Program-made: the position numbers and the translations under genes
In this document: positions 26,447-57,533 of the stretch, piece after piece
How the letters are laid out: the number at the start of each line of letters is the position of its first letter
How positions within the stretch are numbered: the first letter of the stretch is position 1
Notes under the pieces: model-generated
What the model was told of the DNA's origin: nothing
The model's database searches: none
What the model saw: the letters and a program-made list of their open reading frames with translations, nothing else
Source of the DNA: Streptomyces dangxiongensis
Lineage (GTDB): Bacteria; Actinomycetota; Actinomycetes; Streptomycetales; Streptomycetaceae
DNA length: 64,000 bases
Direction of reading: 5' to 3'
NCBI RefSeq assembly: GCF_003675325.1
Contig: NZ_CP033073.1
Location: forward strand, 5,394,001-5,458,000

Positions 26447-27739
26447 ATGGAACGCATCGGGGGATACCTCGTCGAGCGCCGGCTCGGCGAGGGCGGCATG
26501 GGCACGGTCCACCTCGCACGGACGCGCGGCGGACGGGCCGTCGCGCTGAAGGTCGCCAAGCCCGAACTGGCCGCCGACCCGGTCTTCCGCGAGCGGTTCC
26601 GCAGCGAGGTCGAGGCGGCTCGGGCGGTGGGCGGCTTCCACACGGCGCCGGTGGTAGACGCCGACGTCACCGGCGACCCGCTCTGGCTGGCCACCGCCTA
26701 CATCCCCGGGCCCACCCTCGCGGCCCGGCTCGCCGCCGACGGCGCCATGGACGAGCCGCGGCTGCGGGCCCTGGGAGCCGCCCTCGCCGAGGCCCTGGAG
26801 TCCATCCACTCCTGCGGCCTGGTCCACCGCGACCTGAAGCCGGGCAACATCATCATGGCCGACGACGGGCCGCGCGTCCTGGACTTCGGCATCGCCCGGG
26901 CCGTGGAGTCCACCCGCCTCACCGCCACCGGCACCGCCTTCGGCACCCCCGGCTTCCTCGCGCCCGAGCAGGCCCTGGGGCACGACGTGACCGGCGCCGC
27001 CGACGTGTTCGCCCTCGGAGCCGTGCTGGTGGCGGCGGCGGGCGGCACCGCGTGGGGCGAGGGCACCCCGATGGGGCTGATGTACCGCTCGGTGCACGAG
27101 CCGCCGGACCTGTCCGCCGTACCGGCCGCCCTGGCGGACGTCGTGGCCGCCTGTCTGGCCAAGGAGCCCGCGGACCGGCCCACGCCCACCGCGCTGCTGG
27201 ACCTGCTGACCGGCTCCGCCCCGCCGCCGGCCCACCCGCTGACCCCGTACCCACCGACGACGCTCACCCCGCCCCCGCCGCCGCAGGTGCCCACCGCGCC
27301 CCCGCAGATGCCCACCGCGCCCCCGCCGGTGTTCCTCCCGGCGGCGCAGGGGTTCGGCGCGCCCCCGCCGCCCCCGTACCAGCAGCCCGTGCAGGCCGCC
27401 ACGCCCGCGCACCTGCCCGCCGCCGCGCCGCCGGCCCCCTACGGTTTCGGGCCGCCGGTCCCGTACGGCAGCCCGGAGGCCGTCCTCGCCGACGCGCAGG
27501 CCGGCGTGGTCGTCAACGCCGCCGGGGTGCTCCTGGAGATCGCGGGCACCACCGCGGACTTCCCGTGGGACGAGATCGCGCACGTCGAACGCACCTGGCG
27601 CGGCAACCGTCTCACCGTCACCGTCCGGCTGTGGGACGGCGGTGTGTACTCCTGCGAGCTGAACGCCCGCCGCAAGGCCCGGCTGAGCACCTGGGTGACC
27701 CAGCTCGACCCGGTCCTCGGCCGGTACCTGACCCGGTAG
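26447..27739 (+). CDS. Serine/threonine protein kinase (Hanks type) with Pro-rich linker
   Basis: A 430-aa cytoplasmic kinase. The Gly-rich loop is LGEGGMGTVHLAR, the invariant Lys is in VALKVAK, the catalytic loop is HRDLKPGNI, and DFGIARA and APEQ follow. The kinase domain ends near residue 260. A long Pro/Thr/Ala linker follows with a repeated TAPPQMPTAPPP pattern (about 265-335). A C-terminal domain of about 90 residues (AQAGVVVNAAGVLLEI...WDEIAHVERTWRG) resembles a PH-like or immunoglobulin-like beta module. There is no transmembrane helix and there are no PASTA repeats, so it is soluble, not PknB-like. The substrate is unknown. It lies alone before a STAS/anti-sigma pair. Confidence 0.92.
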   Translation: MERIGGYLVERRLGEGGMGTVHLARTRGGRAVALKVAKPELAADPVFRERFRSEVEAARAVGGFHTAPVVDADVTGDPLWLATAYIPGPTLAARLAADGAMDEPRLRALGAALAEALESIHSCGLVHRDLKPGNIIMADDGPRVLDFGIARAVESTRLTATGTAFGTPGFLAPEQALGHDVTGAADVFALGAVLVAAAGGTAWGEGTPMGLMYRSVHEPPDLSAVPAALADVVAACLAKEPADRPTPTALLDLLTGSAPPPAHPLTPYPPTTLTPPPPPQVPTAPPQMPTAPPPVFLPAAQGFGAPPPPPYQQPVQAATPAHLPAAAPPAPYGFGPPVPYGSPEAVLADAQAGVVVNAAGVLLEIAGTTADFPWDEIAHVERTWRGNRLTVTVRLWDGGVYSCELNARRKARLSTWVTQLDPVLGRYLTR

Positions 27740-28134: not shown

Positions 28135-28503
28135 GTGAGCGGAACCGAGCCGGGAAGGCCCCAGCGGGTCGTTGTCGTGCCCACGCCCGCCGTGCCGCGA
28201 CTCGATGTGTACCCGCTGAGCGGGCGGACCGGACTGCGGGCGGCGGGCGAGGTCAGCCTGCCCACGCGGGGCATCTGGGAACGCGCGCTGGAGCGGGCCG
28301 TTCGCGAGGGCGATGACGTGTATCACTTGGAGCTTTCCGCGCTGACCTTCGTCGACGTCGCGGGCGCCGGCGCGCTGGCGGACGCGGCCCGGCGCCGGGG
28401 CGAGCGGCGGCGGCTGGTGCTGGACCGGCCCCCGGCCGTCCTGCCACGCATGCTGGACCTGCTGTGGCCCGGACTCCGGGGGATCGAGGTGTCGGCGTCA
28501 TGA
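28135..28503 (+). CDS. STAS-domain anti-sigma factor antagonist
   Basis: A 122-aa SpoIIAA/RsbV-like protein. The fold elements are LRAAGEVSLPTRGIWERAL, DVYHLELSALTFVDVAGAGAL and VLDRPPAVLPRMLDLL. The usual phosphorylatable Ser/Thr of the D(S/T)xG motif is represented by the DVAGAG stretch, which has no Ser or Thr at that point. It may therefore signal without phosphorylation or be a sensor variant. The GTG start at 28135 follows GGGGGGA. Its last codons overlap the next gene (ATGA), so it is coupled to a protein with an anti-sigma-type ATPase domain, its probable partner. Confidence 0.8.
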   Translation: MSGTEPGRPQRVVVVPTPAVPRLDVYPLSGRTGLRAAGEVSLPTRGIWERALERAVREGDDVYHLELSALTFVDVAGAGALADAARRRGERRRLVLDRPPAVLPRMLDLLWPGLRGIEVSAS

Positions 28504-29465
28504 CCGCAGTCGTCGAGGCCCGGTCCGCCGAGGCCGCCGACCCGTTCGTGCACCCCGCCCTGTTCTACGCCGGCGCACGGGAGTACGTGTCCGGCACCGT
28601 CCCCTTCGTCCGGGCGGCGCTGGCCGCCGGGGAGCCGGTCGCGGTGGCGGTGCCCGGCGAGAACCTGCGCCTCATCCAGGACGAGCTGGGCGCCGACGGC
28701 GACGCCGTACGGTTCCTGGACATGCGGGAGGCCGGCCGCAACCCCGGCCGGATCATCCCCGGCGTGCTGCGGGCCTTCGCCGACGCCCAGCCGCCCGGCC
28801 GGCGGGTCCGCATCATCGGCGAGCCGGTGTGGGCGGGCCGCAGCCCGGCCGAGTACCCGGCCTGCGCCCAGCACGAGGCGCTGATCAACGCCGCGTTCCA
28901 GGGCCGCGAGATCACCATCCTGTGCCCGTACGACACCTCCCGCCTGGACGAGCGGGCGCTCGCCGACGCGCACGCCACCCACCCCGTCCTCATCCCGGCC
29001 GGCTCCGCGGGCGAGCGGGCGAGCGCCGCCTACGACCCGGACGGGGTGGTCGCCCGCTACAACGAGCCGCTGCCACCGGTGCCGGACGGCCCGGACCTGC
29101 TCTCCGTCGGCTTCCACAAGGACGTGCTCTCCGCCGTCCGGCACTCGGCCACCGACCACGGCGCCCGGCTGGGCCTGTCCGGCCTGGCCCTGGAGAACCT
29201 GACGCTGATCACCGCCGAGCTGACCACCAACAGCGTCGTCCACGGCGGCGGCACGGGCGTGCTCACGGTGTGGCCCGACAGCGGGTCCGTGCTGTGCCAG
29301 GTCCGCGACGGGGGCCGCCTCGCCGACCCGCTGGCCGGCCGCCGGCCCGTCGCCCGCGACCAGCGCGGCGGACGCGGTCTGCTGCTGGTCAACCTGGTGG
29401 CGGACCTGGTGCGGGTCCACGCCGGACCCGAGGGGACGACCATCCGGGCCTACCTGGGCCGCTGA
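28500..29465 (+). CDS. MEDS-domain protein with C-terminal HATPase (anti-sigma/sensor kinase)
   Basis: A 321-aa two-domain regulator. The N-terminal 190 residues match the MEDS (methanogen/methylotroph DcmR sensory) type: HPALFYAGAREYVSGTVPFV, MREAGRNPGRIIPGVL and CAQHEALINAAF, with ITILCPYDTSRLD near the end. The C-terminal RsbW-like ATPase has the N-box ITAELTTNSVVHG and the G-box GGRGLLLVNLVADLV. It probably binds and phosphorylates an antagonist or sequesters a sigma factor in response to a small ligand. It is translationally coupled (ATGA) to the STAS gene, and its stop nearly meets mbl from the other strand. Which sigma factor it controls is unknown. Confidence 0.85.
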   Translation: MTAVVEARSAEAADPFVHPALFYAGAREYVSGTVPFVRAALAAGEPVAVAVPGENLRLIQDELGADGDAVRFLDMREAGRNPGRIIPGVLRAFADAQPPGRRVRIIGEPVWAGRSPAEYPACAQHEALINAAFQGREITILCPYDTSRLDERALADAHATHPVLIPAGSAGERASAAYDPDGVVARYNEPLPPVPDGPDLLSVGFHKDVLSAVRHSATDHGARLGLSGLALENLTLITAELTTNSVVHGGGTGVLTVWPDSGSVLCQVRDGGRLADPLAGRRPVARDQRGGRGLLLVNLVADLVRVHAGPEGTTIRAYLGR

Positions 29466-29478
29466 GCCGCCGCCGGCC

Positions 29479-30516
29479 TCAGGCGGCCAGGGGGTTCAGC
29501 ACCAGCGGCTCGATCCGGCCCTCCAGCATGTCGCCCAGGCCCTGCGCCGCGCAGATGTCGGGCCGTTCGGCGATGTGCACCGGCATCCCCGTCGCCTGCC
29601 GCAGCATCTGGTCGAAGCCGGGCAGCCGCGCGGAGCCGCCGACCATGGTGATCCCGCGGTCGGCGAGATCGGCCACCAGGTCGGGCGGGCAGTCGCGCAG
29701 CACCTTGCCGATCCCGTCCAGGACGGCCGTCAGCGGGGTCTGGATCGCGCCGCGCACGGCGGCGGTGTCCACCCGCACACTGCGCGGCAGGCCCGTCACC
29801 ACGTCCCGGCCGTGGATCTCCGCGGACGCCGGCCCCTGCGAGGTGAGCCCGTTGCCCGACAGGGCGAGCTGGAGCGGCCGTACCGACTGGCTGGGCAGCA
29901 TCAGCTCGTGCTCGTGCCGCAGGTGCTGCACGATGGCGTGGTCCACGGCCTCGCCGCCCACCGGGACCCGCTCGGCGGCGACGATGGACCCCATCGACAG
30001 CACCGCGACCTGGGTGGCCGCCGCCCCGCACACCATGATCATGGTGGCCTCGGCCCGTTCCACCGGCAGCCCGCACCCCACGGCCGCCGCGATGAGCGTG
30101 TCCACCAGCTCCACCCGCCTGGCCCCGAGCCCGACCAGCGTCTCGATCGTCGCCCGCTGGGCCAGCGGATCGGCGTCGTGCGGGGTGCAGGCCGCCGCGC
30201 GCAGCCGGGGCTTGCGGCGCAGCGCCCGGCGCGTCCTGTCGCCGAGCAGGTGCCGCAGCATCCGCTGGGCCATCTCGATGTCGACCACGGTGCCCCCGGA
30301 GATGGGCCGCACGACCCGGATGTAGTCCGGGGTCCGTCCCGTCATCTGCTCCGCGAACTCGCCCACCGCGATGAGCGCGCCGGACCGCGTGTTCACGGCC
30401 GCGACCGACGGCTGGTCGACGACCAGGCCGGTGCCCTTCACGTACACGCGGGTACGCGCCGCGCCCAGGTCGACGGCGAAGTGACAGCGGCGCAACTGCT
30501 CCAGGCTGACGGTCAC
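29479..30516 (-). CDS. mbl: MreB-like actin homologue Mbl
   Basis: A 345-aa actin/Hsp70-fold ATPase. The phosphate-1 loop is FAVDLGAARTRVYV, with GLVVDQPSVAAVN, the connecting segment around AAAVGCGLPVERA, phosphate-2 (MIMVCGAAATQVAVLS) and GITMVGGSARLPGFDQML for the adenosine site. In phosphate-2 the usual DIGGGT is replaced by VCGAAAT, so this protein is divergent from canonical MreB. In S. coelicolor, Mbl (SCO2451) acts in aerial hyphae and spore-wall formation; that role is transferred here by similarity and location. The gene is monocistronic, 170 bp upstream of the disrupted SAV_2336-type gene's stop codon. Confidence 0.85.
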   Translation of the reverse strand: MTVSLEQLRRCHFAVDLGAARTRVYVKGTGLVVDQPSVAAVNTRSGALIAVGEFAEQMTGRTPDYIRVVRPISGGTVVDIEMAQRMLRHLLGDRTRRALRRKPRLRAAACTPHDADPLAQRATIETLVGLGARRVELVDTLIAAAVGCGLPVERAEATMIMVCGAAATQVAVLSMGSIVAAERVPVGGEAVDHAIVQHLRHEHELMLPSQSVRPLQLALSGNGLTSQGPASAEIHGRDVVTGLPRSVRVDTAAVRGAIQTPLTAVLDGIGKVLRDCPPDLVADLADRGITMVGGSARLPGFDQMLRQATGMPVHIAERPDICAAQGLGDMLEGRIEPLVLNPLAA

Positions 30517-30686: not shown

Positions 30687-33600
30687 TCACAGGGAACGGG
30701 CGGCCTCCAGCAGCGGTTCGAGGGACGACACGGTGACCTCGCTGCCCTCCTCGCGCAGCCGCCGGCGCCCCGGCGGCGGTGGGGGGCGTATCCGATGAAG
30801 CGGAGGCCGAGCTGCTGGGCGGCGGTGAGTTCGGCGACCGAGGAGCTGATCAGGACGCCGCCGCGGGCCGGTGTGCCGCGGGCCCGCAGGGCGCGCAGCA
30901 GACAGTCGGGGTGGGGCGTCAGCAGGCCGAGGTCGGCGCGGCGGCCGTGGACGCCCGCGAGCGGCAGCCGGCAGGGCTCCAGGTAACGCTGGACGGCCGG
31001 GGTGCTGACGTCCGTCACCACGCTGACGCGCCGGCCGGAGCGGTGCAGGGCGCGCACCAGCGCGAGGGAGCGGTGCGTCGTGGGCGCGTCGGGGACGGCG
31101 CGCAGTTCCAGGTCGTCCAGGCGTGCCCGCAGCAGGGGACCGAGCCGGTCGTGGGCGAAGGCGCGCAGCAGGTCCAGCGGATGGGTGAACGCCTCGCGGC
31201 CGACGGGTCCGGCGAGGGGCAGTGGCCGGCCCGTCAGCGCGTCCTGCGGATCGCGGTGGTCGGCCACGACGGACAGCAGGTCGAGGACGGCCTCCCGGGC
31301 CCGCTGCGCCGGGAACAGCCGGGCGAGGGGACCGTCGAAGCCGATCAGCACCGTCTGGGCGTCGTCCAGGAGGGCCGACAGCCGGCGGCGCGACGGGACC
31401 GGCGGCTCCGCCTCCGGTGCGGGCGCCCACTCGGGGACCAACTGCACGGTGTACGACACCGCCAGCCCCGGCACCGGCCACGCGTCGACCCCCGCGTTCA
31501 CCGCCCGCTGGGCCGCGCCCGCGCGGCGCAGCGGATGGTGGCGCGTGAGCGGGGCCGCCGCGGCGGTGAGATGCGCCAGCAGGAGCCCGGGGACGCCGGT
31601 GGTCTCGGCGCGGACGAAGGCGATGGGGTCCTCGACGCGCCAGGACAGCTTGACCGCGGCCTTGAACGCGCCCTTCCCGGAACTCGGCAGGGACACCAGG
31701 TGCCGGGCCTCGTGCGGGGTGAGGTCGACCGTGTAGTACGTCTCCGGGCGGGGCGCGCGGGTGCCGTACGGCTGGATCGGGTCGAGCAGGGTCAGCGGGC
31801 CGCCGGGCCGCGTGTGCACGATCGCCGTGCGGCCCGGGGTGGGGACGCCCAGCTCGTGCAGATCGGGCGTGATGAACGGGCCCCGCACCAGGTCGCGTTC
31901 ACCGGGCTCGGGGGACCTCGGGCCCAGCAGGCAGTACCAGGCGGCCGGCGGACTGTCCGGGGCGCTGTCGCGGAAGAGCGGCCGGAACGGCGGGGAGCGC
32001 CGGGCGGCGGAGCTGGCGGCGAAGCCGTCGTACAGCGCGGGCGGTACGACGACCACGATGTCCGCGGCCGCCTCCGGCGGCCGGACGGACGGCTCCCCGA
32101 ACGTCACCCCGAGCCGGGGCGGGTCGGTCAGCCGGCTCAGCGCCTGGGGGAGTTCCCGCAGGACGGCGACGAGGGCGGGCAGCAGATAGGCGTCCGGCTC
32201 GGTGCGTACCAGGTAGCCGTCCGGACGGACGTCCACCGCGTACTGGCGGGGGCCGAGGGAACCGCGGGCCAGGACCTCGTGCACGGCGGCTTCGAGCGTG
32301 ATGCGGGCCTCCGGCCGGCCGCTGAGGTCATCGGCCGAGAACCGGATCCCGGAGCGGCCGACGGGGACCCCGTCCCCGTCCCGGGCCCCGGCGTCGGCGC
32401 TGGGGGTGTGCTCCCGGTGCGGCGTGGCCGCTACCGAGAGCCGGCGCACGCTGTCCTCGCTGACCGTGGCGAACGGGTCGTCCTCCGCCGCCGTGCCCGC
32501 GCCCCGCGCGGCGGGCACCGACGCCCGGAACTCGCCCGGCGCCCGGCCCGCCCGCCGGTCGATGAACTCGCCCACGCGTTCCAGGAGTCCGGCGGTGCTG
32601 TTGCGGGCGGTGCGCGGCAGGCCGAGCAGGAGCAGTTCCCGCACCCCGTCCCGGAAGGCGTAGGCGCCGGGCGGGCCGCCCCGGGACGGTGACGAGCATG
32701 CCGCTCAGGACGATCTCGGCCAGGTGCTGGGGGCGGGGTTCGGGTTCGACGGCGGCCTGGACCAGGCGCATGACCGGCAGGTCGGGGCGCCCCACCGCGA
32801 GATGGCCGGCCAGCCGGAACGCCTCGGGGGGAGGCGGTCGCCCGGAACCGCAGCACCAGTTCCTCGGCGGACAGCGCGCCGACGTCCGTGCGGTCCTCGG
32901 CGTCCGCCGGGAGCGGCCGGCCCAGCTCGGCGACCGCGCCGGGCACCTCCCCGCCGCCCGGCGCCGTGAGCAGCGCCGCCCAGTGCGCCAGCCAGCGCGG
33001 TTCCGGCTCCAGCACGGGGAGGGGCACGGTGTCCACGGCCGGCTCGTGCGCGTGCCGCTCGTACGGGGTGAACATGAGCGTCGCCGAGGGCGCCACGGGG
33101 TGCGGGGCCGACAGGCGGCCGGGCGTGGCGGGAAGCGCCGTGTCCCGCCACAGATGCTCCGGGAGCGGCTGGACGACGGCGAGGGGCGTGCGTCGTGCCC
33201 AGCGGCGCAGGGTGGCGTACCAGCGGGTGCCGGCGGGGCCCTCCCGCCACTGCGGGCCCATGCAGTCGCTGATCAGGAGGGTGACGGTGCGGCCGCCGTC
33301 GCCGGGGGCGTGCGTGTCGGCGCCGCGTACGGTGCCGTCGGCGGCGGCCCGGTACAGGGCGACCGTGCGGAAGGTGCCCGACTGGGCCAGGGCCGTGTGC
33401 AGTTCGCGGATCAGGGGCCGCCAGACCGGCATCGTGGGCCCGGTGTCGTACACCAGGTTCAGGCGCAGCCAGCGCTCCTGGGCGGGGCGCAGCACGGGCA
33501 GCCACCACTCGGGGGCGGCGCCCAGGCGGGCGATGCGGTCGGCGGTCGCCCGCTCGTCCAGCTCGCGGCCGACGGGCGCGTCGACGCGGCGCCCCAGCGG

Positions 33601-34032
33601 GCGCAGCGCGCGCTGGAGCGCGAGGGGGTGGCGCAGCATCGGGGGCGCCGGGGCCAGCAGCGTGGTGCGGGGCCGGCCCGCCGGTGCGGGGGCGGGGAGG
33701 TGGGAGGGCAGGTGCAGGGGGACGCGGGAGGGCGGCCCGGGGGCTCGGGCCGGTGCGGGCGCAGGGTCCCGGTCCGCCGGGCGGGAGGGCCGGGGCGCCG
33801 GCCGGTCCGTGGGCGGCCGGGTGGGCGGCGGCTTCGGGGGCGGTGGTGCCTGCTCCGGGGCCGGCGGCTGCCCGGTGGTCTCGCCGTCCGTGGCGCCGGG
33901 GCTCATGTGTCCGGCCAGCCACAGCAGTTCTGCCAGTTCGAGCGGGGTCGGGCGCACCCCGTGGGCCGCCTCGGCCAGGATGCCGGCCAGGCGGACCACG
34001 GGGTCCGGGGAACCGGCGCGGTCAGAAGACAT
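30687..34032 (-). pseudogene. SAV_2336-type vWA-like plus HAD-like protein, interrupted by three one-base indels
   Basis: A coding region of about 1115 residues spread over frames. Part 1 (34032 to about 32830) begins MSSDRAGSPDPVVRLAGILA and has a Pro-rich linker. A vWA-like domain follows, with LVYDTGPTMPVW in place of the DxSxS metal site. Frame breaks occur at a G-run at 32826-32831 (one extra base), near 32683-32686 (one extra) and at the G-run 30781-30786 (one missing). Between the last two the frame runs GAYAFRDGVRELLLLGLPR through a SAV_2336-type segment to a C-terminal HAD-like domain. The protein would end EEGSEVTVSSLEPLLEAARS. HAD motif I reads VLIGFDGPLARLF, so the nucleophile Asp is Gly. 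It overlaps the MoxR gene by 11 nt. The indels may be assembly errors. Confidence 0.75.
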
Positions 34033-35101
34033 CGGACTGCGCCGCCTGCCCGAGGTACGGCATCAGCCGTTCGGCCAGCCGGTCGAGGGACTCGGTGTCC
34101 AGGTCGGCGGAGCGGGCCAGGTAGATCGCGTTGAGGAGCTGGTCGGTGGCCAGGTCGCCGACGCCCGCCCGGGACAGGAAGCGGTCGATCAGGGTCCGCG
34201 CGTACGCGTCCGGTTCCCCCAGGTGGGCGCGGACGATCTCGGCGAGGTGCCGGTCGTCCGGCTGCCGCAGGTGCAGCGTGACGCAGCGGCGCAGGAAGGC
34301 GGGCGGGAACTCGCGCTCGCCGTTGCTGGTGAGGACGACGAACGGGAAGGCCCGGCAGCGGACCCGGCCGTGCGCCACCGGCACCCGCTCGTCGGCGCCG
34401 TCGGCCAGCACCTCGGCGACGCCGTCCGGTGCGAGGCGGGCGGCGCGCACCAGCTCGGGAATCTCGTACTGGCCCTCCTCCAGCACGTTCAGCAGGTCGT
34501 TGGGCAGGTCGAGGTCGCTCTTGTCGATCTCGTCGATGAGCAGGGCGCGGGGCCGGTCGTAGGGCAGCAGGGCGGTGCCGAGCGGGCCGAGGCGCAGATG
34601 GTCCTCGATGCCCGACCCGCCGGCCGCCCCCTCCGCCCGCCCGTCCTGGCCGGCCGGTCCGCCGGGGCCGGTCCGGCCGGTCCGGTCGGTCCGGGTGACC
34701 ACCTGCCGGGCCGAGTACAGCCGCGACAGCGGGTCGTACTGGTACAGGCCGTCGTGCAGCGTGCTGCGGCTGGTGATGTTCCAGCGCAGGACCGGACCGA
34801 GCCGCAGCTCACGGGCGACCGCGTACACGAGGGAGGACTTGCCGGTGCCCGGCGGCCCGGTGACCAGCAGCGGGCGGCGCAGGTACAGGGCCGCGTTGAC
34901 GAGCTGGACCGTCTGCTCCGTGGCCTGGTACGTCTCGGCGCGGTGCATGCGGTCGGGTGAGACGGCGGAGGCCTCGGTGACCGCGTCGGGCGCCCGGAGC
35001 ACCGGCCCGCCGTCGAAGGCCCGCCACGGCGGTGGCGGGGGCAGCTTCCCGATGCCGTCGTGCGGCTCGTTCGTACCGGTATAGACGGGCCACAGGGGCA
35101 T
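34022..35101 (-). CDS. MoxR-family AAA+ ATPase
   Basis: A 359-aa cytoplasmic AAA+ ATPase. Walker A is VTGPPGTGKSSLV, Walker B is ALLIDEIDKSDLDLPN, sensor 1 is FVVLTSNGEREFP, and an Arg finger lies in PAFLRRCVTLHL. A low-complexity Gly insert (about residues 140-165) separates Walker A from Walker B. MoxR proteins act as chaperone-like partners of vWA proteins. Here the vWA-like gene follows directly with an 11-nt overlap, and a trypsin-like protease gene precedes by 30 nt. This MoxR, vWA and protease order fits predicted conflict or quality-control cassettes. Confidence 0.92.
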   Translation of the reverse strand: MPLWPVYTGTNEPHDGIGKLPPPPPWRAFDGGPVLRAPDAVTEASAVSPDRMHRAETYQATEQTVQLVNAALYLRRPLLVTGPPGTGKSSLVYAVARELRLGPVLRWNITSRSTLHDGLYQYDPLSRLYSARQVVTRTDRTGRTGPGGPAGQDGRAEGAAGGSGIEDHLRLGPLGTALLPYDRPRALLIDEIDKSDLDLPNDLLNVLEEGQYEIPELVRAARLAPDGVAEVLADGADERVPVAHGRVRCRAFPFVVLTSNGEREFPPAFLRRCVTLHLRQPDDRHLAEIVRAHLGEPDAYARTLIDRFLSRAGVGDLATDQLLNAIYLARSADLDTESLDRLAERLMPYLGQAAQSDVF

Positions 35102-35131
35102 TTGCTCTTCTTCTCCGTGGGGGGCGGTCGG

Positions 35132-36856
35132 TCAGACGACGGGGGAGTGCAGGCTCGCGGTGGCCTCGGGGAAGCAGCGCGGGTCGTCCCAGAGGAGCTG
35201 GAGGTCTCGCGCCCAGTGCAGGTCCGGCTCGTCGGCGGCGTCCGCGGCCAGCCGCAGGGACAGGATGTGGCGCGGGAGTTCGGCGGGCGGGACCTCCGCG
35301 ACCGACACGGCTAGCTGGTCGAGGAACGCCCCGCCGGGGCAGGGCTGTTCCGTGGGCCCGGGGTGGCCCGGGTCCGTGTGCGCGGTGTGGGGGCAGCCGG
35401 TCCGGGACCACAGCAGGACGGGGACGGGCACGGTGAGACCGACCTCGAAGTGGCCGCGTGCCGCCGTGGGCGGGGAGGCGTAGCCGGCCAGTCCGGCGTC
35501 GCCGTCCCACAGCCGCTTGCGCAGGCTCGGCGGGCGCTCGGCGGTGCCGCACTCCACGCGGTGCACCTCGACCCCCTGTCCGGCGGAGTCCAGCTTCTGC
35601 CACTTCTTGCGAAGCTGGTGGCGCAGCCGGCCACTGTGGTGGCGTGCCCGGTCGGTCACCACGAGGGGATACGCGCACCCGAGGGGGGTGCTGTCCTCCG
35701 CGCCGCACTCCCAGTGCGCCACCGCCTCGTTGAGCCACTCGCGCGGCAGGACGAACGTCACCAGCTCGTCGGCGTCCGGGGCGAGCTGGGCGACGGCCTC
35801 GTCGATGCGGCTCTGGACGTAGGCCCGCACACCGGTCCGCGGCAGCCGGCCCGCGCCCACCGGACGGCGCTGTCCGTCGCGGTACGCGGACACCTCCACG
35901 GTCACCTGGTCGGGACCGGCGCCGCTGTGCTCGATCTCGACGACGACCGGAGCCCAGGCCGGCGACGCCGGAGGGGCGGGAGGGGCCGGGGCCGCGTCCA
36001 GCAGTTCCCCGAGGCGGGCGGCGAACCGGTTCACCGCCTCCGGATCCGGCACCTCCCACTGCACGTACGCGGCAGCCGCCCACAGGGAGGGGAAGCCGCC
36101 CGCGGGCAGGGGCGGCCCGAACGCGCCCACCGCGTCCACGTAGAGCCGGTTCGGATCGCAGCCGCGGCCGGCGTCCGAGTCGCCTCCGCGGCCGGCGCCC
36201 GCGGCCCGCCGCAGCAGGGCGTACAGCCGCCGGCGGCTGTCGTCCCGGTGGCCGGGGGTGGGCACCAGCTCGCCCAGTTCGGGCCAGTACCGGGCCATCA
36301 CGTCCAGCGGCAGCATCCGGCCCTTGCGCACCGCCGGCGCGTCCAGGGCCGCGGTGACCATGCCGGCGACCCTGCCGTCCGGCAGGGTCGCCGCCGCCCC
36401 GCTGAATCCGGCCACGAGCGGCTGCCCGTGCCCGTGCCAGGCGACCAGTTCCAGCCACTCGCCGGCGATCAACTGGCCGGAGACGGCCTGGTACTCGGCG
36501 AGGGTGCCCTCGTCGTAACCCTCGGGGAAGCCGTACGCGATCAGTTTGGGGTACGGCTCCGTGTACGCGGCGTCCGGCGGCGCGAAGCCGGCCGGCGCGA
36601 GCGGGACGTCCCGCTCCAGTTCCAGTACGGCCACGTCACCGGGGTCGGTGACGTCGCCCGCCCAGCCGCCGTGGGCGACGACCGAGGCGGACAGCTCGCC
36701 CAGCTCCCGGGCGTGCGGGAAGGAGACGGTCACCGCCGCCGTGCCGCTGCCCTCGACCACGTGGGCACAGGTGAGGACCCGGCGGCCGGTGATCAGGAAC
36801 CCGGCCCCCACCTCGTGGCCGCAGACGATCCGGGCGTGCCAGGCAGCACTGCTCAT
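35132..36856 (-). CDS. Trypsin-like serine protease with long C-terminal region (VMAP-type)
   Basis: A 574-aa protein without a signal peptide. The N-terminal 190 residues form a trypsin-like domain with His in LTCAHVVEG, Asp in GDVAVLELERD and Ser in VAGFSGAAATLPDG, so the triad appears intact. A linker leads to a region of about 330 residues (EVPDPEAVNRFAARLGELLD ... SLHSPVV). It contains beta-rich segments and WLNEAVAHWECG-like motifs that recall vWA-MoxR-associated protein (VMAP) C-termini; that part is inference. The protein would act inside the cell, perhaps cutting a partner after ATPase activation. Its ATG overlaps the upstream gene's TGA by one base. Confidence 0.8.
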   Translation of the reverse strand: MSSAAWHARIVCGHEVGAGFLITGRRVLTCAHVVEGSGTAAVTVSFPHARELGELSASVVAHGGWAGDVTDPGDVAVLELERDVPLAPAGFAPPDAAYTEPYPKLIAYGFPEGYDEGTLAEYQAVSGQLIAGEWLELVAWHGHGQPLVAGFSGAAATLPDGRVAGMVTAALDAPAVRKGRMLPLDVMARYWPELGELVPTPGHRDDSRRRLYALLRRAAGAGRGGDSDAGRGCDPNRLYVDAVGAFGPPLPAGGFPSLWAAAAYVQWEVPDPEAVNRFAARLGELLDAAPAPPAPPASPAWAPVVVEIEHSGAGPDQVTVEVSAYRDGQRRPVGAGRLPRTGVRAYVQSRIDEAVAQLAPDADELVTFVLPREWLNEAVAHWECGAEDSTPLGCAYPLVVTDRARHHSGRLRHQLRKKWQKLDSAGQGVEVHRVECGTAERPPSLRKRLWDGDAGLAGYASPPTAARGHFEVGLTVPVPVLLWSRTGCPHTAHTDPGHPGPTEQPCPGGAFLDQLAVSVAEVPPAELPRHILSLRLAADAADEPDLHWARDLQLLWDDPRCFPEATASLHSPVV

Positions 36857-37260
36857 CACCGGTCGGCGGCCTCCGGGACCGGCGCGGCCTGGCCCGGCAC
36901 ACTCCGCCCCGGCGCGGGCTCCGCGGGTGCCGTCGGCTCCGGCTGCTGTCCGGGGGACCAGCTCAGCTTGACCACCAGGTGGCCCTCCGTCGATCCCTTC
37001 GCGATGACGGCACCGGCCTCCGCGGACATCCGCACCCCGAACTCGATCTCCACCGCGTCGGGGCGCAGGCTGCCGTCCCGGAACACCCGCAGCGCGGCCG
37101 AGGCCGCCGCCCGTACGCCCTCCAGGGCGCCCTCGAAGGTCCGCGCCGCCTGCGCCGGTCCGTCGCCGCGCGAGACGAGTCGGGCACCGGACCGGGTCAC
37201 CACGTCCTCCACCACGACCCGCGCGCCGTCCTCGGTCGTGAACTCCACCAGCCCGTCCAT
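36856..37260 (-). CDS. CU044_2847-type protein (trypsin-co-occurring domain 1, Trypco1)
   Basis: A 134-aa protein. It opens MDGLVEFTTEDGARVVVEDV and has the RTFEGALEGVRAAASAAL and DAVEIEFGVRMSAEAGAVIAK segments typical of the CU044_2847/Trypco1 family. Family members occur next to trypsin-like peptidases and are predicted to be their substrates or activators. The last 35 residues are Pro/Ala-rich and probably disordered. It is the first gene of the four-gene cassette, coupled to the protease by TGATG. GGGGGAG lies about 10 nt upstream of its ATG. It is divergent from the secreted subtilase across 228 bp. Confidence 0.8.
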   Translation of the reverse strand: MDGLVEFTTEDGARVVVEDVVTRSGARLVSRGDGPAQAARTFEGALEGVRAAASAALRVFRDGSLRPDAVEIEFGVRMSAEAGAVIAKGSTEGHLVVKLSWSPGQQPEPTAPAEPAPGRSVPGQAAPVPEAADR

Positions 37261-37488: not shown

Positions 37489-40400
37489 ATGAGAAGAGAA
37501 CCGGTCGGACGCGGGGCGGCGCTGTGGGCGGCCGGGCTCGTGCTGACGCTGTCGCCGACGGCGACGGGAACGCCGCAGGCAGCGGCAGCGGCGACAGCAG
37601 GGGCGACGGCGGCGGCGCCGGCTGCCGTGGGCGGTGCGCCGCGGGCCCCGCGCACGACGGCCGCCGCCCGGACCGTCACCCTCGTCACCGGCGACCGGGT
37701 GACCGTCACCGACCTCGGGCACGGCAGGAGGACGGTCACCGTGCGCCGCCCGCCCGGGGCCACCGGTGCCGTGCGGACGCGGACGAGCGACGGCGACCTG
37801 ACCGTCGTACCGGACGAGGCGCTGCCGTATCTGCGGGCCGGGACGCTGGACCGGCGGCTGTTCGACGTGAGCGGGCTTATCCGGCAGGGGTTCACGGACG
37901 CCGGGACCGACGCGCTGCCGCTGATCCTGGCCTACGGCAGGAACGCGCGGGCCGCCGTCCCGGCCGGAGCCGAGCGGATCCGCACACTGGCCAGTGTCCG
38001 AGGGGCGGCCGTCGAGGCCGGCCGGGGGCGCACCTTCTGGCGGGCGTTCACCGCTTCGTCCGGCATCGACCGGGTGTGGCTCGACGGGCGGGTGACGGCC
38101 CGTCTGGCCGAGAGCAACGCCCAGATCGGCACCCGGGTGGCGTGGGACGCGGGGCTGACCGGGAAGGGCGTCACCGTCGCCGTCCTGGACACCGGCGCCG
38201 ACCTGAGCCACCCCGACCTCGCCGGCCGGGTCGACGAGGCGAGGAGTTTCGTCGACGGGCAGGAGGTCGTCGACCGCGACGGGCACGGCACCCACGTCAC
38301 CTCCGTCGTCGGCGGCAGCGGTGCCGCCTCCGGCGGCCGGGAGCGGGGCGTGGCGCCGGGCGTGACACTCGCCGTCGGCAAGGTGCTCGGCGACCAGGGC
38401 TCGGGCAGCGAGTCCCAGATCATCGCCGGCATGGAGTGGGCCGCACGGGACGTGCACGCCCGGATCGTCTCGATGAGCCTGGGCACGGCGGAGGCCAGCG
38501 ACGGCACCGACCCGATGGCCAGGGCGCTCGACACCCTGTCCCGGGAGACCGGCGCGCTGTTCGTCGTCGCCGCCGGCAACGCCGGCGCCCCGTCCTCCAT
38601 CGGTTCGCCCGGCGCCGCCGACGCCGCCCTCACCGTCGGCGCGGTCGACGCCGACGACCACGCGGCCCCCTTCACCTCCGCCGGCCCCCGCTACGGCGAC
38701 AACGCCCTGAAACCGGACCTCGCCGCCCCCGGCGTCGGCGTCCTCGCCGCCCGCTCCCACCTCGCGCCCGGCGACGGCTACTACACCGCCATGAGCGGTA
38801 CGTCCATGGCGGCCCCGCAGGTCGCGGGCGCCGCGGCGCTGCTCGCCGAGGAACACCCCGGCCTCACCGGCCCCCAGTTGAAGAACGCGCTGATGTCCGG
38901 CGCACGGCGACTGGACGCCTCCCCCTACGTGCTGGGCGCCGGACGGGTGAGCGTGCCGGACGCGGTGCGGGCGACGGTCACCGCGACGGGCAGCGCCGAC
39001 CTCGGCTTCCACAGCCGGCCGCGGGACACCGACGAACCGGTCACCCGGACCCTCACCTACACCAACACCGCCGCCGGACCGGCCGAGTTGCGGCTGTCGG
39101 TGCGGGGCGCCCCGGACGGGGTCGCCACCCTCGCCGACGACACCCTCACCGTGCCCGCGCACGGCACCGCCTCCACCACCGTCACCGGCGACGCCTCCCG
39201 GGCGCCGGCCGGTACGACCAGCGGGTGGGTGGTGGCCGTGGACGGGACCGGCGCCATCGTCGCGCACACCGTGTTCGGGCTGGTCAAGGAGGAGCGGTAC
39301 ACGCTCACCGTCCATGTCCGGGACCGCGCGGGAGGCCCGGCCCCCGCCGACCTCACCGTCCAGCGGCTCGCCGCCGGCGAGGACGCCCAGCAGGCCCGGG
39401 TGGACGACTCCGGCACGCTCGCGCTGCGCCTGCCACCCGGCACCTACGCCCTCGTCACCTTCCTCGACGTGCCCGGCGGTCACGGCCCCGACTCCCTCGG
39501 CCTCGGCTTCCTCACGGCCCCCGGGACCGTCCTCGACCGGGACCGCGACGTCACCCTGGACGGGCGCCGGCTGCGGGAGGTGGCGGCACGCGTGGACCGG
39601 CGCACCGAGACCCGCCAGCTCGTCATGGAGTACGACCGCCGGGCCGGCGGCGCCGACCTGTCCGGCGCCGTCCAGGTGCCCCTCACCTACGACAGCGTCC
39701 TCGCCGCGCCCACGCCCCGGGTCGCCCGGGGCACCTTCGAGTACCGGACCGTGTGGCGGCTGGCCGCGCCCCGGCTGGAGGTCAGGGGCGTCACCGAGGC
39801 GACCGTCCAGCCGGGCGGCACCCTCGTCGGGGGCCGCACGCGACTGCCCCTGGTGGACGTGGCCGACGGACCGGTCACCGGGGTGTCCGGCAAGGCGGTC
39901 CTCGCCCGTCTCGCCGACGGCACCGACCCGGCCGCGCTCGCCCGTGCCGCCGAGGACGCCGGCGCCCGGGCCCTGTTCGTCACGGACGACGTCCCCGGCC
40001 GGCTGACGGCCTGGTGGGGCACCGACGACAACACCGACCGGCCGCTGACGATCGCCACGGTGAACCGGGCGGACGCGGCCCGCCTGCGGGCGGCGGGCCG
40101 CGTCGACATGACCGGCAGGGCCTACCCGCCGTACGTCTACGACCTCACGCAGGGCCACCGGGGCGCGATCCCGGACCGGGACCTCACGTACGCGCCCGGC
40201 CGGGGTGAACTGGCCGCCGTGCACGTCCGGTTCCACGCCGCCGGTTCGCGGGACGGCGGCGAGTTCCGGTACTCGCTCACCGACGCCTTCCCGGTCGGAC
40301 TCGGCTTCCAGGAGCGCGTCGCCCTGCCCTCCGAGCGCACCGACTACGTCTCCGCCGGACCCGGCCGGCGCTGGCAGGAGACCGTCACGGCCGCCGACGG

Positions 40401-41151
40401 CGCCCTGGAGGAACGCGGCGGGCTCGTCCGCTACACCGGCGGTACCCGGCCGGCACTGGACTGGTTCGGTCCCGTGTGGCATCCGTGGCTGGGTACCGGA
40501 CTCGGCCGGGGCCAGGAACGCGCCGGTGACCGGATCCGGCTGGACACCCCCGGCTGGGGCGACTCCGGGCCCGGCCACACCGGCTCCGGGGACGTGTGGA
40601 GCGGGAGCAGCGGGATGACCCAGACCACCGCCGTCCGCCTGGACGGCACCCTGGCCGACCGGCGCACCGGATCCGCCGTCCAGGTCGAGGGCGCGCCCGC
40701 CGACGAGCACACGTACACGGTCGTCACCGACACCGCCCTGGACGCCGGCCGCTGGCCGCTGGCCACCCGGGGCCACAGCGAGTGGACGTTCCGCTCGGCG
40801 GCCACCCCGGAGGACCACTGGACCGCCCTGCCGCTGATCAACCTCGTCTGCCGCCCGCGCACCGGCCTCGCCGGCACCGTGCCCGGCGGGCGGCGGACAC
40901 CGGTCACGCTGCACGCGGAGTACGTGGCGGACGCCCCGGGCACCGGGACGCTCGGCGACGCCCGCCTGGAGGTGTCGTACGACGCCGGCCGGACCTGGCG
41001 GCCGGTGCCGCTGGCGGGCCGGGACGCCTCCTGGCACGGCACCCTGACCGTGCCGCGCACCGCGTCCGACATCTCCCTGCGGGCCTCGGCCCACGACGAC
41101 CGGGGCGGCTCGGTGACCCAGGAGATCGTCCGGGCGGTGGCGGTGCGCTGA
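37489..41151 (+). CDS. Large secreted subtilisin-like serine protease (S8)
   Basis: A 1220-aa extracellular protease. The signal peptide covers about residues 1-35 (MRREPVGRGAALWAAGLVLT). A propeptide follows to about residue 205. The catalytic domain has Asp in VAVLDTGADLSHPDL, His in DGHGTHVTS and Ser in SGTSMAAPQVAG, all intact. The oxyanion Asn is in VVAAGNAG. About 700 residues of beta-rich C-terminal region follow, with no LPXTG anchor. It starts after a GGAAGAGGGG sequence. Its stop nearly meets that of the convergent carboxyltransferase, so no terminator lies between them. The target protein is unknown; nutrient scavenging or envelope maturation are the usual roles. Confidence 0.93.
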   Translation: MRREPVGRGAALWAAGLVLTLSPTATGTPQAAAAATAGATAAAPAAVGGAPRAPRTTAAARTVTLVTGDRVTVTDLGHGRRTVTVRRPPGATGAVRTRTSDGDLTVVPDEALPYLRAGTLDRRLFDVSGLIRQGFTDAGTDALPLILAYGRNARAAVPAGAERIRTLASVRGAAVEAGRGRTFWRAFTASSGIDRVWLDGRVTARLAESNAQIGTRVAWDAGLTGKGVTVAVLDTGADLSHPDLAGRVDEARSFVDGQEVVDRDGHGTHVTSVVGGSGAASGGRERGVAPGVTLAVGKVLGDQGSGSESQIIAGMEWAARDVHARIVSMSLGTAEASDGTDPMARALDTLSRETGALFVVAAGNAGAPSSIGSPGAADAALTVGAVDADDHAAPFTSAGPRYGDNALKPDLAAPGVGVLAARSHLAPGDGYYTAMSGTSMAAPQVAGAAALLAEEHPGLTGPQLKNALMSGARRLDASPYVLGAGRVSVPDAVRATVTATGSADLGFHSRPRDTDEPVTRTLTYTNTAAGPAELRLSVRGAPDGVATLADDTLTVPAHGTASTTVTGDASRAPAGTTSGWVVAVDGTGAIVAHTVFGLVKEERYTLTVHVRDRAGGPAPADLTVQRLAAGEDAQQARVDDSGTLALRLPPGTYALVTFLDVPGGHGPDSLGLGFLTAPGTVLDRDRDVTLDGRRLREVAARVDRRTETRQLVMEYDRRAGGADLSGAVQVPLTYDSVLAAPTPRVARGTFEYRTVWRLAAPRLEVRGVTEATVQPGGTLVGGRTRLPLVDVADGPVTGVSGKAVLARLADGTDPAALARAAEDAGARALFVTDDVPGRLTAWWGTDDNTDRPLTIATVNRADAARLRAAGRVDMTGRAYPPYVYDLTQGHRGAIPDRDLTYAPGRGELAAVHVRFHAAGSRDGGEFRYSLTDAFPVGLGFQERVALPSERTDYVSAGPGRRWQETVTAADGALEERGGLVRYTGGTRPALDWFGPVWHPWLGTGLGRGQERAGDRIRLDTPGWGDSGPGHTGSGDVWSGSSGMTQTTAVRLDGTLADRRTGSAVQVEGAPADEHTYTVVTDTALDAGRWPLATRGHSEWTFRSAATPEDHWTALPLINLVCRPRTGLAGTVPGGRRTPVTLHAEYVADAPGTGTLGDARLEVSYDAGRTWRPVPLAGRDASWHGTLTVPRTASDISLRASAHDDRGGSVTQEIVRAVAVR

Positions 41152-55831: not shown

Positions 55832-57533
55832 CTATCCGGTCTGGCCGATGCCCGCCGCGTTCGGCCAGCTCTGGGCGTTGGGCCAGCCCGTCGCGGGGGC
55901 CGGGGTCAGGCCCGTGGCCGGGGCCGGGGCCGTCATCCCGCGGACCTGGGCCGCGGTGAGCCCGCCGCGGGCCGGGACACCGGGCGGAGTGGGGGCGGAG
56001 GCGGCATACGCCGCGGGGGCCAGGGGCGCGGGTGCGGGGGCCGGTACGGGCGTGGGAGCCGGTGCGGGCGTGGGTGCCGGTACCGGAGTGGGGGCCGGCA
56101 CGGGAGTGGGGGCGGTGGGGGGCACGGGTGGGGGCGCCGGCGTGGGCCGGGGGGCCGGGGTGTACGCCGGCTGGGGGAGGGAGGCCGCCGCCGGGAGCGG
56201 GGTTCCCGTGGCGGGCGGCGGTACGGCGGCCGGGAGCGGCATGCCCGTGCCGGTGGCCGGGGCGGGGACGGCCGGGGCGACCCCCACGCCCGTGCCGGCG
56301 GCCTGGGCGGCCAGTCCCGGCAGACCCGCCCCGTTGGTCTCGCTGACCAGCCGGTCCACCGCCGCCGTACCCGAGCTGTAGCTCATCCCGGCGCCCGGCC
56401 CGGGTACGGCGGCTCCCCTCCTGGACCCGTAGAGCACCTGTTCCAGGCCGGACACCAGGCGACGCACGTCGACCTGGGGGCGCACCACGAGCCGCAGGAA
56501 GCGGCTGGAGGATCCGATCTTGTTGCCGCATTCGCGGACCAGGATCCGGTGCTCGGTGAGCATCCGGTCCCGGACCACCGTGCCCTCGGCGCCGACGGGA
56601 AGGCGGACGAAGAGGAAGTTGCCCTGGGAGGGGTAGACCGTGAGGCCGGGGAGCGCGGAGAGCCGGCCGGCCATGTCCAGCCGGTCGCGGCGGACCTGGT
56701 CCAGGCTCTGCGCGTACTCGGGCCCGTGCTCCCGCAGCATGAACACCACGTGCTCGGCGAGGGAGTTGAGGTTCCACTTCGGCAGTCTGGAGCGGATCCT
56801 GCCCGCGAGTGCCGGGGTTGGCGACGAGGTAGCCGAAGCGTACGCCGTGCAGGCCGAAGTTCTTGCCGAGGCTGCGCAGCACGACCACGTTGGGGCGGAG
56901 CACGGCCTCCTGGACGACGCTCGGCTCGGGCTCCGCGTCGGCGAACTCCAGGAAGGACTCGTCCACGATCACCAGGTCGAGGTCCGCCATGGCGTCCATG
57001 AACTCCACGACCTGCCGGCGGTGCAGATAGCCGCCGTCGGGGTTGTTCGGGTTGCAGACCACCGCGACCCGGGTGCCCCGGGCGCGGATGAACTCGGCGT
57101 ACCGGCCGAGGTCCAGGGCGAAGCCGTTCGCCTCCTGGAGCGGGAACATGTCGACCCGCTTGCCCGTCTCCATCGGCTGGTCGGTCCAGCGGCCGAAGGT
57201 GGGCACCGGGATCGCCAGGGACTCGCGGACGAGGAGGTGGTCGATCCAGGTGATCAGTTCCGTGGAGCCGTTGCCCATCGCCACGCACTGCGGGGGCAGC
57301 CGGAGCAGACCGCACAGTTCCGCGGTGATGGTGTCGGTGCTGCTCGGGTAGTACGTGATGATCTCGCGCAGCCGGGCCCCCATCTCCTCGAACATGGCGG
57401 GGGTGGGGAAGTACGGGTTGCACGGGATGCAGAAGTCCACCGGGCCCGACCCGTCGCTCTCCCGCGTCAGCGCCGCCATCGAAGGGCTGTGCGCGGCGGC
57501 GTCGCGGAACAACGAGGTGACGTTGTCAGGCAA
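55832..57533 (-). pseudogene. Class I/II aminotransferase (HisC-like) with Pro/Ala/Thr tail, one frameshift
   Basis: A PLP enzyme of about 567 residues if read through. The first frame has FCIPCNPYFPTPAMFEEMGA, NGSTELITWIDH, CNPNNPDGGYLH, VDESFLEFAD and the PLP Lys in RSLGKNFGLHGVRFGYL. At about 56814-56819 (CCGGGG on the plus strand) one extra base shifts the frame. The next frame continues LAGRIRSRLPKWNLNSLAEH to the C-terminus with GNFLFVRLP and SSRFLRLVVRP. A 190-residue tail is rich in Pro-Ala-Thr-Val. The start is TTG at 57533, since GGAGG precedes it by 5 nt and the ATG at 57572 falls inside a terminator hairpin. Either it is inactive or the base is a sequencing error. Confidence 0.75.
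56040..56111 (-). repeat. Four 18-bp tandem repeats coding Pro-Thr-Pro-Val-Pro-Ala
   Basis: Units begin at 56040, 56058, 56076 and 56094, each close to GCCGGTACGGGCGTGGGA on the plus strand. They encode hexapeptide repeats in the aminotransferase tail and keep its frame. Confidence 0.85.

What the first reader, a model, noticed from the sequence alone, without database searches (positions are those of the whole stretch)
30687..37260. Compact Trypco1 / trypsin / MoxR / vWA-HAD cassette, a candidate NTP-dependent conflict system
Four minus-strand genes are coupled or nearly so (TGATG overlap, 30-nt gap, 11-nt overlap). They encode a Trypco1-like small protein, an intracellular trypsin-like protease with intact triad, a MoxR AAA+ ATPase, and a large SAV_2336-type protein with vWA-like and HAD-like regions. 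Such combinations define vWA-MoxR-associated conflict systems predicted by comparative genomics; few have been tested. Here the trypsin could be the effector released when the ATPase/vWA pair senses invasion, with Trypco1 as its gate. The HAD-like C-terminus fused to the vWA region seems unusual.
Basis: partly seen in the sequence, partly recalled or inferred. Interest (0 to 1): 0.78.

Follow-up and report, generated by a model that had tools for sequence, protein, structure and literature searches.

The report
Bacterial protease alarm, one gene broken
This is a member of an already described family of predicted bacterial anti-virus machines (a gated protease, a molecular motor and a scaffold protein), and in this strain the scaffold gene reads as broken in three places.

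Summary
First, the vWA protein is not one reading frame: it breaks near 32.83, 32.68 and 30.78 kb, while 39 of 40 relatives with the complete gene have one frame. A coding-frame scan calls two breaks in this 3.3-kb gene against 1.5 per 100 kb in 400 kb of the same genome, so decay is likely, but a local sequencing fault is not excluded. The copy also lacks a kinase-like domain of its closest relatives. Second, the HAD-like end is not unusual: it is in print and in 32 of 42 relatives' vWA frames. The trypsin triad is kept in 120 of 120 listed homologues, while the HAD nucleophile is absent in 120 of 120 and the kinase HRD aspartate in 77 of 77. This favours the trypsin as the live effector, with the vWA arm as sensor or bait. 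Antiviral function is untested. The MreB-like neighbour marks the location and is not a component.

The parts
36856..37260 (-). Trypco1 protein, 134 aa
   Evidence: PF19493 E 1.8e-25, NF041216 E 3.6e-22
35132..36856 (-). VMAP subunit, 574 aa: N-terminal trypsin (1-193, triad H32/D74/S152), helical middle, VMAP-C (316-559)
34022..35101 (-). MoxR-type AAA+ ATPase, 359 aa, with the N-terminal motifs WPVYTG and PPWRAF and Walker A GPPGTGKS
   Evidence: PF07728 36.8 bits and, partially, PF20030 (MoxR of beta-propeller ternary systems) 29.3 bits, both over cut-off; motifs of VMAP-system MoxR given; sequence
32832..34032 (-). vWA gene, frame 1: N-terminal helix, linker and vWA domain (this frame runs on to a stop at 32431)
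   Evidence: NF041121 E 1.1e-99
32681..32831 (-). vWA gene, frame 2: C-terminal extension of the vWA domain
   Evidence: NF041121 profile 379-430; 95.9% identical to P0001
30782..32680 (-). vWA gene, frame 3: rest of the extension, an undefined region (the cyclase and Band-7 positions of Kaur 2020, not confirmed here), HAD-like domain at about 31357-30782
   Evidence: 92-99% identical to P0001; HAD fold in relative P0040; in the window protein itself the Pfam HAD match is weak (E 0.049, below cut-off)
30687..30781 (-). vWA gene, back in frame 2: C-terminal tail and stop
   Evidence: 22-residue tail 100% identical to P0001 and P0003
32425..32435 (-). junction where the closest relatives (P0001-P0003) carry a kinase-like domain of about 205-220 aa that is absent here, in frame
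29479..30516 (-). MreB-like gene: conserved chromosomal neighbour, not a component
   Evidence: PF06723 E 1.1e-108; in 119 of 121 genus genomes with or without the cassette
37489..41151 (+). S8 subtilase, divergent gene on the other side of the cassette in many relatives
   Evidence: PF00082 E 2.3e-58

Best explanation
It is a VMAP-type MoxR-vWA ternary conflict system of the Trypco1/trypsin subtype, sitting as an accessory cassette between an MreB-like gene and an S8 subtilase in a Streptomyces chromosome. Shown by sequence: the domains, the gene order, an intact protease triad, ATPase motifs, vWA metal-site aspartates, and a HAD arm without its catalytic nucleophile. Inferred: MoxR rings and the vWA subunit hold the VMAP trypsin inactive. 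The vWA protein's arm or the VMAP middle region meets an invader protein, MoxR uses ATP to remodel the complex, and the trypsin is released to cut cell or invader proteins, with Trypco1 helping to couple or restrain it. In this strain the vWA subunit is, as sequenced, truncated after the vWA domain by frame breaks, so the copy is probably decaying or altered rather than a full working system. A second Trypco1/trypsin-VMAP system with an unbroken SAV_2336-type gene lies elsewhere in the same genome.
For: Families. MoxR motifs and gene order as defined in print. Recurrence in relatives. Triad 120 of 120; HAD nucleophile position Gly 119 and Ala 1 of 120; HRD-position Asp in 0 of 77 kinase-region matches; vWA aspartates 117 of 117 aligned. 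In the relatives chosen by their VMAP, not by the arm, the HAD nucleophile is Gly 28, Ser 1, Cys 1 of 30 that cover it. HtrA/MarP-like protease fold and HAD fold. Frame breaks and their local excess. Full, remnant and absent states at the locus. Second system.
Against: No functional data for any VMAP ternary system came up in the searches made here. 3 of 48 distinct VMAP loci lack Trypco1, so it is not an obligatory gate. The printed vWA N-terminal motif was not matched exactly. The frame breaks could be a local sequencing fault; dN/dS gives no clear sign of long decay. Some catalytic residues do persist in the arm: the second HAD motif-I acid is Asp or Glu in 120 of 120, and the DFG-position Asp is present in 51 of 77 kinase-region matches. 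Kaur et al. propose the opposite direction, with the protease freeing vWA-borne effectors.
Confidence: 0.6

Rival explanations
1. The direction proposed by Kaur et al. 2020: the VMAP senses the invader, MoxR activates the VMAP trypsin, and the trypsin cuts the vWA protein to free its C-terminal domains, which act as effectors or dominant-negative decoys.
For: The authors' model. The vWA arm is modular and length-variable, 767-1614 aa among the 120 listed homologues, some of them partial. Dead domains can still act as decoys.
Against: In this clade the HAD nucleophile, and the kinase HRD aspartate where that domain is present, are missing in every homologue scored, so a freed arm would have no known enzyme activity from these two domains. 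The other undefined arm domains were not tested.
Confidence: 0.3
2. The vWA gene is intact in the organism and the frame breaks are sequencing or assembly faults at C/G runs. (This concerns the state of the copy; it does not exclude the other readings.)
For: The breaks lie in or beside C/G runs. dN/dS of the window pieces, 0.20-0.43, stays in the purifying range; between relatives it is 0.21-0.36.
Against: Elsewhere in 400 kb of this assembly the coding-frame scan finds 5 switches, 1.5 per 100 kb of coding sequence, like other assemblies (1.39-1.45, from 6 events in all), against two in this one 3.3-kb gene. Flanking genes MoxR, VMAP, MreB and S8 are unbroken.
Confidence: 0.4
3. A housekeeping or developmental proteostasis module rather than a conflict system, for example tied to cell shape through the MreB-like neighbour.
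For: The MreB-like gene follows the cassette at 39 of 40 distinct loci holding the complete vWA gene, within 350 nt at 37 of them. The family is enriched in multicellular bacteria.
Against: The MreB-like gene is in 119 of 121 genomes, but only 21 of 121 have this VMAP at E 1e-60. In 40 sampled genomes without it the MreB locus carries no cassette, and seven carry remnants. L054 has the cassette on another contig than MreB. The adjacency is synteny.
Confidence: 0.12
4. The locus is already inert in this strain: Trypco1, VMAP and MoxR remain but without a full vWA partner do nothing, a step on the way to the remnants seen in relatives. (This concerns the state of the copy.)
For: Frame breaks. 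Remnant states in relatives: Trypco1 without the rest at 5 of 40 loci, vWA 3' remnants at 2 of 40.
Against: The vWA domain itself is still encoded in frame before the first break, so a truncated subunit could work; the other three genes are intact.
Confidence: 0.35

Closest known systems
VMAP-type MoxR-vWA ternary conflict system with Trypco1-trypsin (Kaur et al. 2020, eLife e52696, PMC7159879)
   Same: VMAP-C fused to trypsin; adjacent Trypco1; order VMAP, MoxR, vWA; MoxR N-terminal motifs; vWA followed by a C-terminal arm ending in a derived HAD; relatives' vWA lengths fall near the published classes
   Different: This copy's vWA gene is frame-broken and lacks the kinase-like domain of its nearest relatives; no Pfam VMAP-M0 match in its middle region
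DGR-linked VMAP systems of multicellular bacteria (PMC10907252)
   Same: Same core with trypsin-VMAP, MoxR, vWA and Trypco1; those authors propose the vWA protein as sensor and the VMAP N-terminus as effector
   Different: A diversity-generating retroelement or C-type lectin domain was not specifically searched for here
HtrA/DegS and MarP (Rv3671c) trypsin-fold proteases
   Different: Here fused to VMAP-C in an operon with MoxR; no PDZ match in Pfam

Membership tests
VMAP ternary system (Kaur 2020) | VMAP-C domain protein | tested here: met
   PF20028 E 7.2e-44, 150.8 bits against cut-off 27
VMAP ternary system (Kaur 2020) | Gene order 5' VMAP, MoxR, vWA 3' | tested here: met
   definition
VMAP ternary system (Kaur 2020) | MoxR N-terminal motifs WxhapG and PsWRxa | tested here: met
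   WPVYTG and PPWRAF in the window protein; motifs
VMAP ternary system (Kaur 2020) | vWA domain with the two metal-site aspartates | tested here: met
   LVYDTGPTM and ISDCMG in the window; Asp in 117 of 117 aligned, of 118 hits; NF041121
VMAP ternary system (Kaur 2020) | vWA N-terminal [D/E]xxx[D/E]xxxa motif | tested here: inconclusive
   The window has PLELAELLWLA, acidic-acidic-aromatic with shorter spacing than printed
VMAP ternary system (Kaur 2020) | Trypsin-bearing VMAP accompanied by Trypco1 or Trypco2 | tested here: met
   PF19493 gene overlaps the VMAP start; described as frequent, not universal
VMAP ternary system (Kaur 2020) | Variable, mostly helical VMAP middle region | tested here: inconclusive
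   Four helices at 205-287 in the model; no Pfam VMAP-M0 hit for this protein, one for the paralogue
VMAP ternary system, intact working copy | All three core subunits encoded as unbroken genes | tested here: not met
   vWA gene split over three frames as sequenced
VMAP ternary system (Kaur 2020), HAD-ended arm | Derived, probably inactive HAD at the end of the arm | tested here: met
   HAD fold in relative P0040; nucleophile position not Asp in 120 of 120 and in 30 of 30
VMAP ternary system (Kaur 2020), HAD-ended arm | Band-7 and cNMP-cyclase domains before the HAD | tested here: inconclusive
   No Pfam match to them in 8 relatives scanned; the structure comparisons covered only the HAD part
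VMAP ternary system (Kaur 2020) | Protection against viruses or other invaders | not testable with these tools
   needs phage challenge
NCBIfam MadB ATPase | Score over the curated cut-off | tested here: not met
   68.3 bits against 475
AVAST Avs1b protease | Score over the curated cut-off | tested here: not met
   22.2 bits against 1500, trypsin part only

The most novel reading that the evidence does not exclude
In this Streptomyces clade the ternary system runs in the reverse of the published direction: the recognisable enzyme-like domains on the vWA protein (HAD, kinase) are conserved dead mimics used as bait for invader proteins, and the HtrA-like trypsin of VMAP is the sole live effector. 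The window strain shows what happens when the bait arm is trimmed, first by in-frame loss of the kinase mimic and then by truncation of the arm, while the protease core stays intact.
Probability: 0.3. Interest if true: 0.6.

Novelty: new member of a known kind. Interest (0 to 1): 0.35.

Why it matters
These systems are widespread in Streptomyces (VMAP-C in 101 of 121 genus genomes), but the searches made here found no functional test of one. Two published proposals disagree on which part senses and which part acts. The pattern here, protease triad always kept while the HAD nucleophile and kinase HRD aspartate are always gone in the homologues scored, points to a simple decisive test with a serine mutant and an arm deletion. 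The naturally broken scaffold and the remnant loci also show how such a cassette may be lost.

Tried and rejected
HAD fusion as a novelty: rejected. MreB-like gene as a fifth component: rejected as synteny, since it is in 119 of 121 genomes. Trypco1 as an obligatory antitoxin-like partner: not supported, because 3 of 48 distinct VMAP loci lack it (L042, L050, L051), although Trypco1 without the cassette does occur. Programmed frameshifting was considered and judged unlikely because 39 of 40 relatives with the complete gene have one frame; the exception, L082, is itself split. PADLOC gave only weak partial hits. PDB sequence search with the VMAP profile found no match at E 0.01; the vWA profile matched only HAD-type entries, two of six below E 0.01. 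The structure second looks tested only the trypsin and HAD parts, so the VMAP-C, cyclase-position and Band-7-position folds stay open. Promoter and terminator scans found no site. A check of the nature of the 56.8-kb break returned no alignment, so that break is not characterised. One literature search on the MreB paralogue led nowhere (listing only).

Rows dropped or limited: five loci in the L035-L054 set duplicate named ones (L035=L059, L036=L062, L037=L056, L040=L076, L045=L063, judged by equal contig lengths), so 53 loci count as 48. Of the 48, six contigs hold no vWA match and two are cut off inside the gene, leaving 40. The homologue counts are for the best 120 listed of 347 (vWA) and of 460 (VMAP). 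The vWA query was the arm that contains the HAD, so its 120 of 120 with a HAD are partly a product of the query; the 32 of 42 comes from relatives found through VMAP. The locus survey took 40 of the 98 genomes that had the MreB-like gene but no VMAP at E 1e-60, by convenience of contig and identity, so the absence of the cassette there follows largely from the choice. Of these 40, 30 showed no cassette gene and no S8 gene beside MreB at all.
Full report
What is there. With that domain the locus can be named: a VMAP-type MoxR-vWA ternary system.

The fit to the published system is close. Kaur et al. 2020 (PMC7159879; abstract, sections 8, 9, 12, 13 and 19, part 1 of section 35, and passages seen) define the gene order VMAP, MoxR, vWA, the MoxR N-terminal motifs WxhapG and PsWRxa (here WPVYTG and PPWRAF), the Trypco1 neighbour of trypsin-bearing VMAPs, and vWA arms in which a Band-7 domain is strongly coupled to a C-terminal HAD; they call the HAD highly derived and possibly inactive. 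Their actinobacterial length peaks near 1125, 1300 and 1450 aa resemble the clusters among the 120 homologues listed here. The Band-7 and cyclase parts could not be confirmed here.

The fourth gene is broken as sequenced. The frame opened at 34032 stops at 32431. The homology to relatives continues in a second frame from about 32.83 kb, in a third from about 32.68 kb, and returns to the second near 30.78 kb. The NF041121 profile splits into three consecutive hits in three frames, and open reading frames from relatives match the window in the same pieces. Aligned with 12 relatives, the breaks are small insertions in or beside C/G runs. Of 40 distinct relative loci that hold the complete gene, 39 keep all matched pieces in one frame and one (L082) is split. 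The neighbours MreB, MoxR, VMAP and S8 match relatives without a break.

Is that real? A coding-frame model trained on this genome found 5 same-strand frame switches in 328 kb of coding sequence outside the window (1.5 per 100 kb), and 1.45, 1.44 and 1.39 per 100 kb in three control sets (1, 1 and 4 events). The window had 3, two of them in the 3.3-kb vWA gene; the third vWA break, beside a last piece of about 95 nt, was not called by the method. So the breaks are not explained by a generally poor assembly. Against old decay, dN/dS of the window pieces is 0.34-0.43 for the vWA-domain piece and 0.20-0.34 for the arm piece, against 0.31-0.36 and 0.21-0.28 between relatives: at most slightly raised. 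The breaks are recent or are a local fault; I put a local fault at about 0.4. The one other window break called, near 56.8 kb, is in an aminotransferase gene.

A further difference: the three closest full-length homologues (P0001-P0003, 91-92% identical over the main arm, 1341-1342 aa) carry a kinase-like domain of about 205-220 aa between the vWA extension and the rest of the arm. The window copy lacks it, and the frame is kept across that junction. Other relatives also lack it (P0017, P0040), so this is ordinary modular variation.

Where it sits. VMAP homologues at E 1e-60 occur in 21 of 121 genus genomes, the window's included; VMAP-C of any kind occurs in 101 of 121. At 39 of 40 distinct loci holding the complete vWA gene the MreB-like gene follows, within 350 nt at 37 and at 1.8-2.1 kb at two, but that gene is in 119 of 121 genomes anyway. 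In 40 sampled genomes lacking this VMAP, the MreB locus had Trypco1 without the rest in 5, vWA 3' remnants in 2, the S8 gene directly beside MreB in 3, and none of these in 30. Trypco1 is a clear open frame of 120 and 108 aa in two of the five (L097, L095), the other three were not listed by the coding filter used, and in L092 and L095 another gene occupies the space. This is compatible with gain and loss of an accessory, defence-like cassette, and it makes the MreB link positional. Trypco1 was found by a profile at 45 of 48 distinct VMAP loci (50 of 53 rows).

The same genome has a second Trypco1/trypsin-VMAP-M0-VMAP-C system near 7.90 Mb, with a MoxR match and an unbroken 1119-aa vWA-type gene whose SAV_2336 region scores 377 bits.

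Literature. Searches for MoxR with vWA and VMAP, for SAV_2336/Trypco1/VMAP-C, for MoxR with von Willebrand and antiphage, and for a Streptomyces combination listed papers of which, from the titles, abstract openings and passages seen, none was an experimental test of a VMAP system; most were not opened. PMC10910872 (passages) notes CRISPR-linked vWA-MoxR-VMAP genes. Subscription papers and preprints are largely outside that library.

Verdict. A new member of a known, predicted kind, with a probably broken scaffold gene in this strain. Identity is secure; the defence function and the direction of action are inferred.

Noticed in passing
window 56160-57533 (-): An aminotransferase-like gene is also split by a frame break near 56.8 kb relative to two relatives' unbroken frames; its nature was not resolved.
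   Followed up: partly
G000:C2 about 7895900-7902800 (L055:5623-12475, -): A second Trypco1 + trypsin-VMAP-M0-VMAP-C + MoxR + vWA system in the same genome, with an unbroken vWA-type gene.
   Followed up: partly
L092, L093, L095, L097, L144 beside the MreB-like gene: Trypco1 without its trypsin-VMAP, MoxR or vWA partners; in L092 and L095 another gene fills the space.
   Followed up: partly
L094 and L099, just upstream of MreB: Remnants of only the 3' (HAD) end of a vWA gene, a sign of cassette decay in other species.
   Followed up: no
L082:12642-17555 (+): Streptomyces sp. DHE7-1 also has a vWA gene split over two frames.
   Followed up: no
L046, between the vWA gene and MreB: A gap of about 1.8 kb separates the two genes here, against at most 350 nt at 37 other loci; what fills it was not examined.
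   Followed up: no
window 28464-29465 (+): MEDS sensory domain with a HATPase_c_2 anti-sigma-like ATPase, flanking the MreB-like gene; found near it in many relatives.
   Followed up: no
window 26447-27739 (+): A Ser/Thr protein kinase gene with a weak partial match to ternary-complex-associated domain TCAD9, below its cut-off.
   Followed up: no
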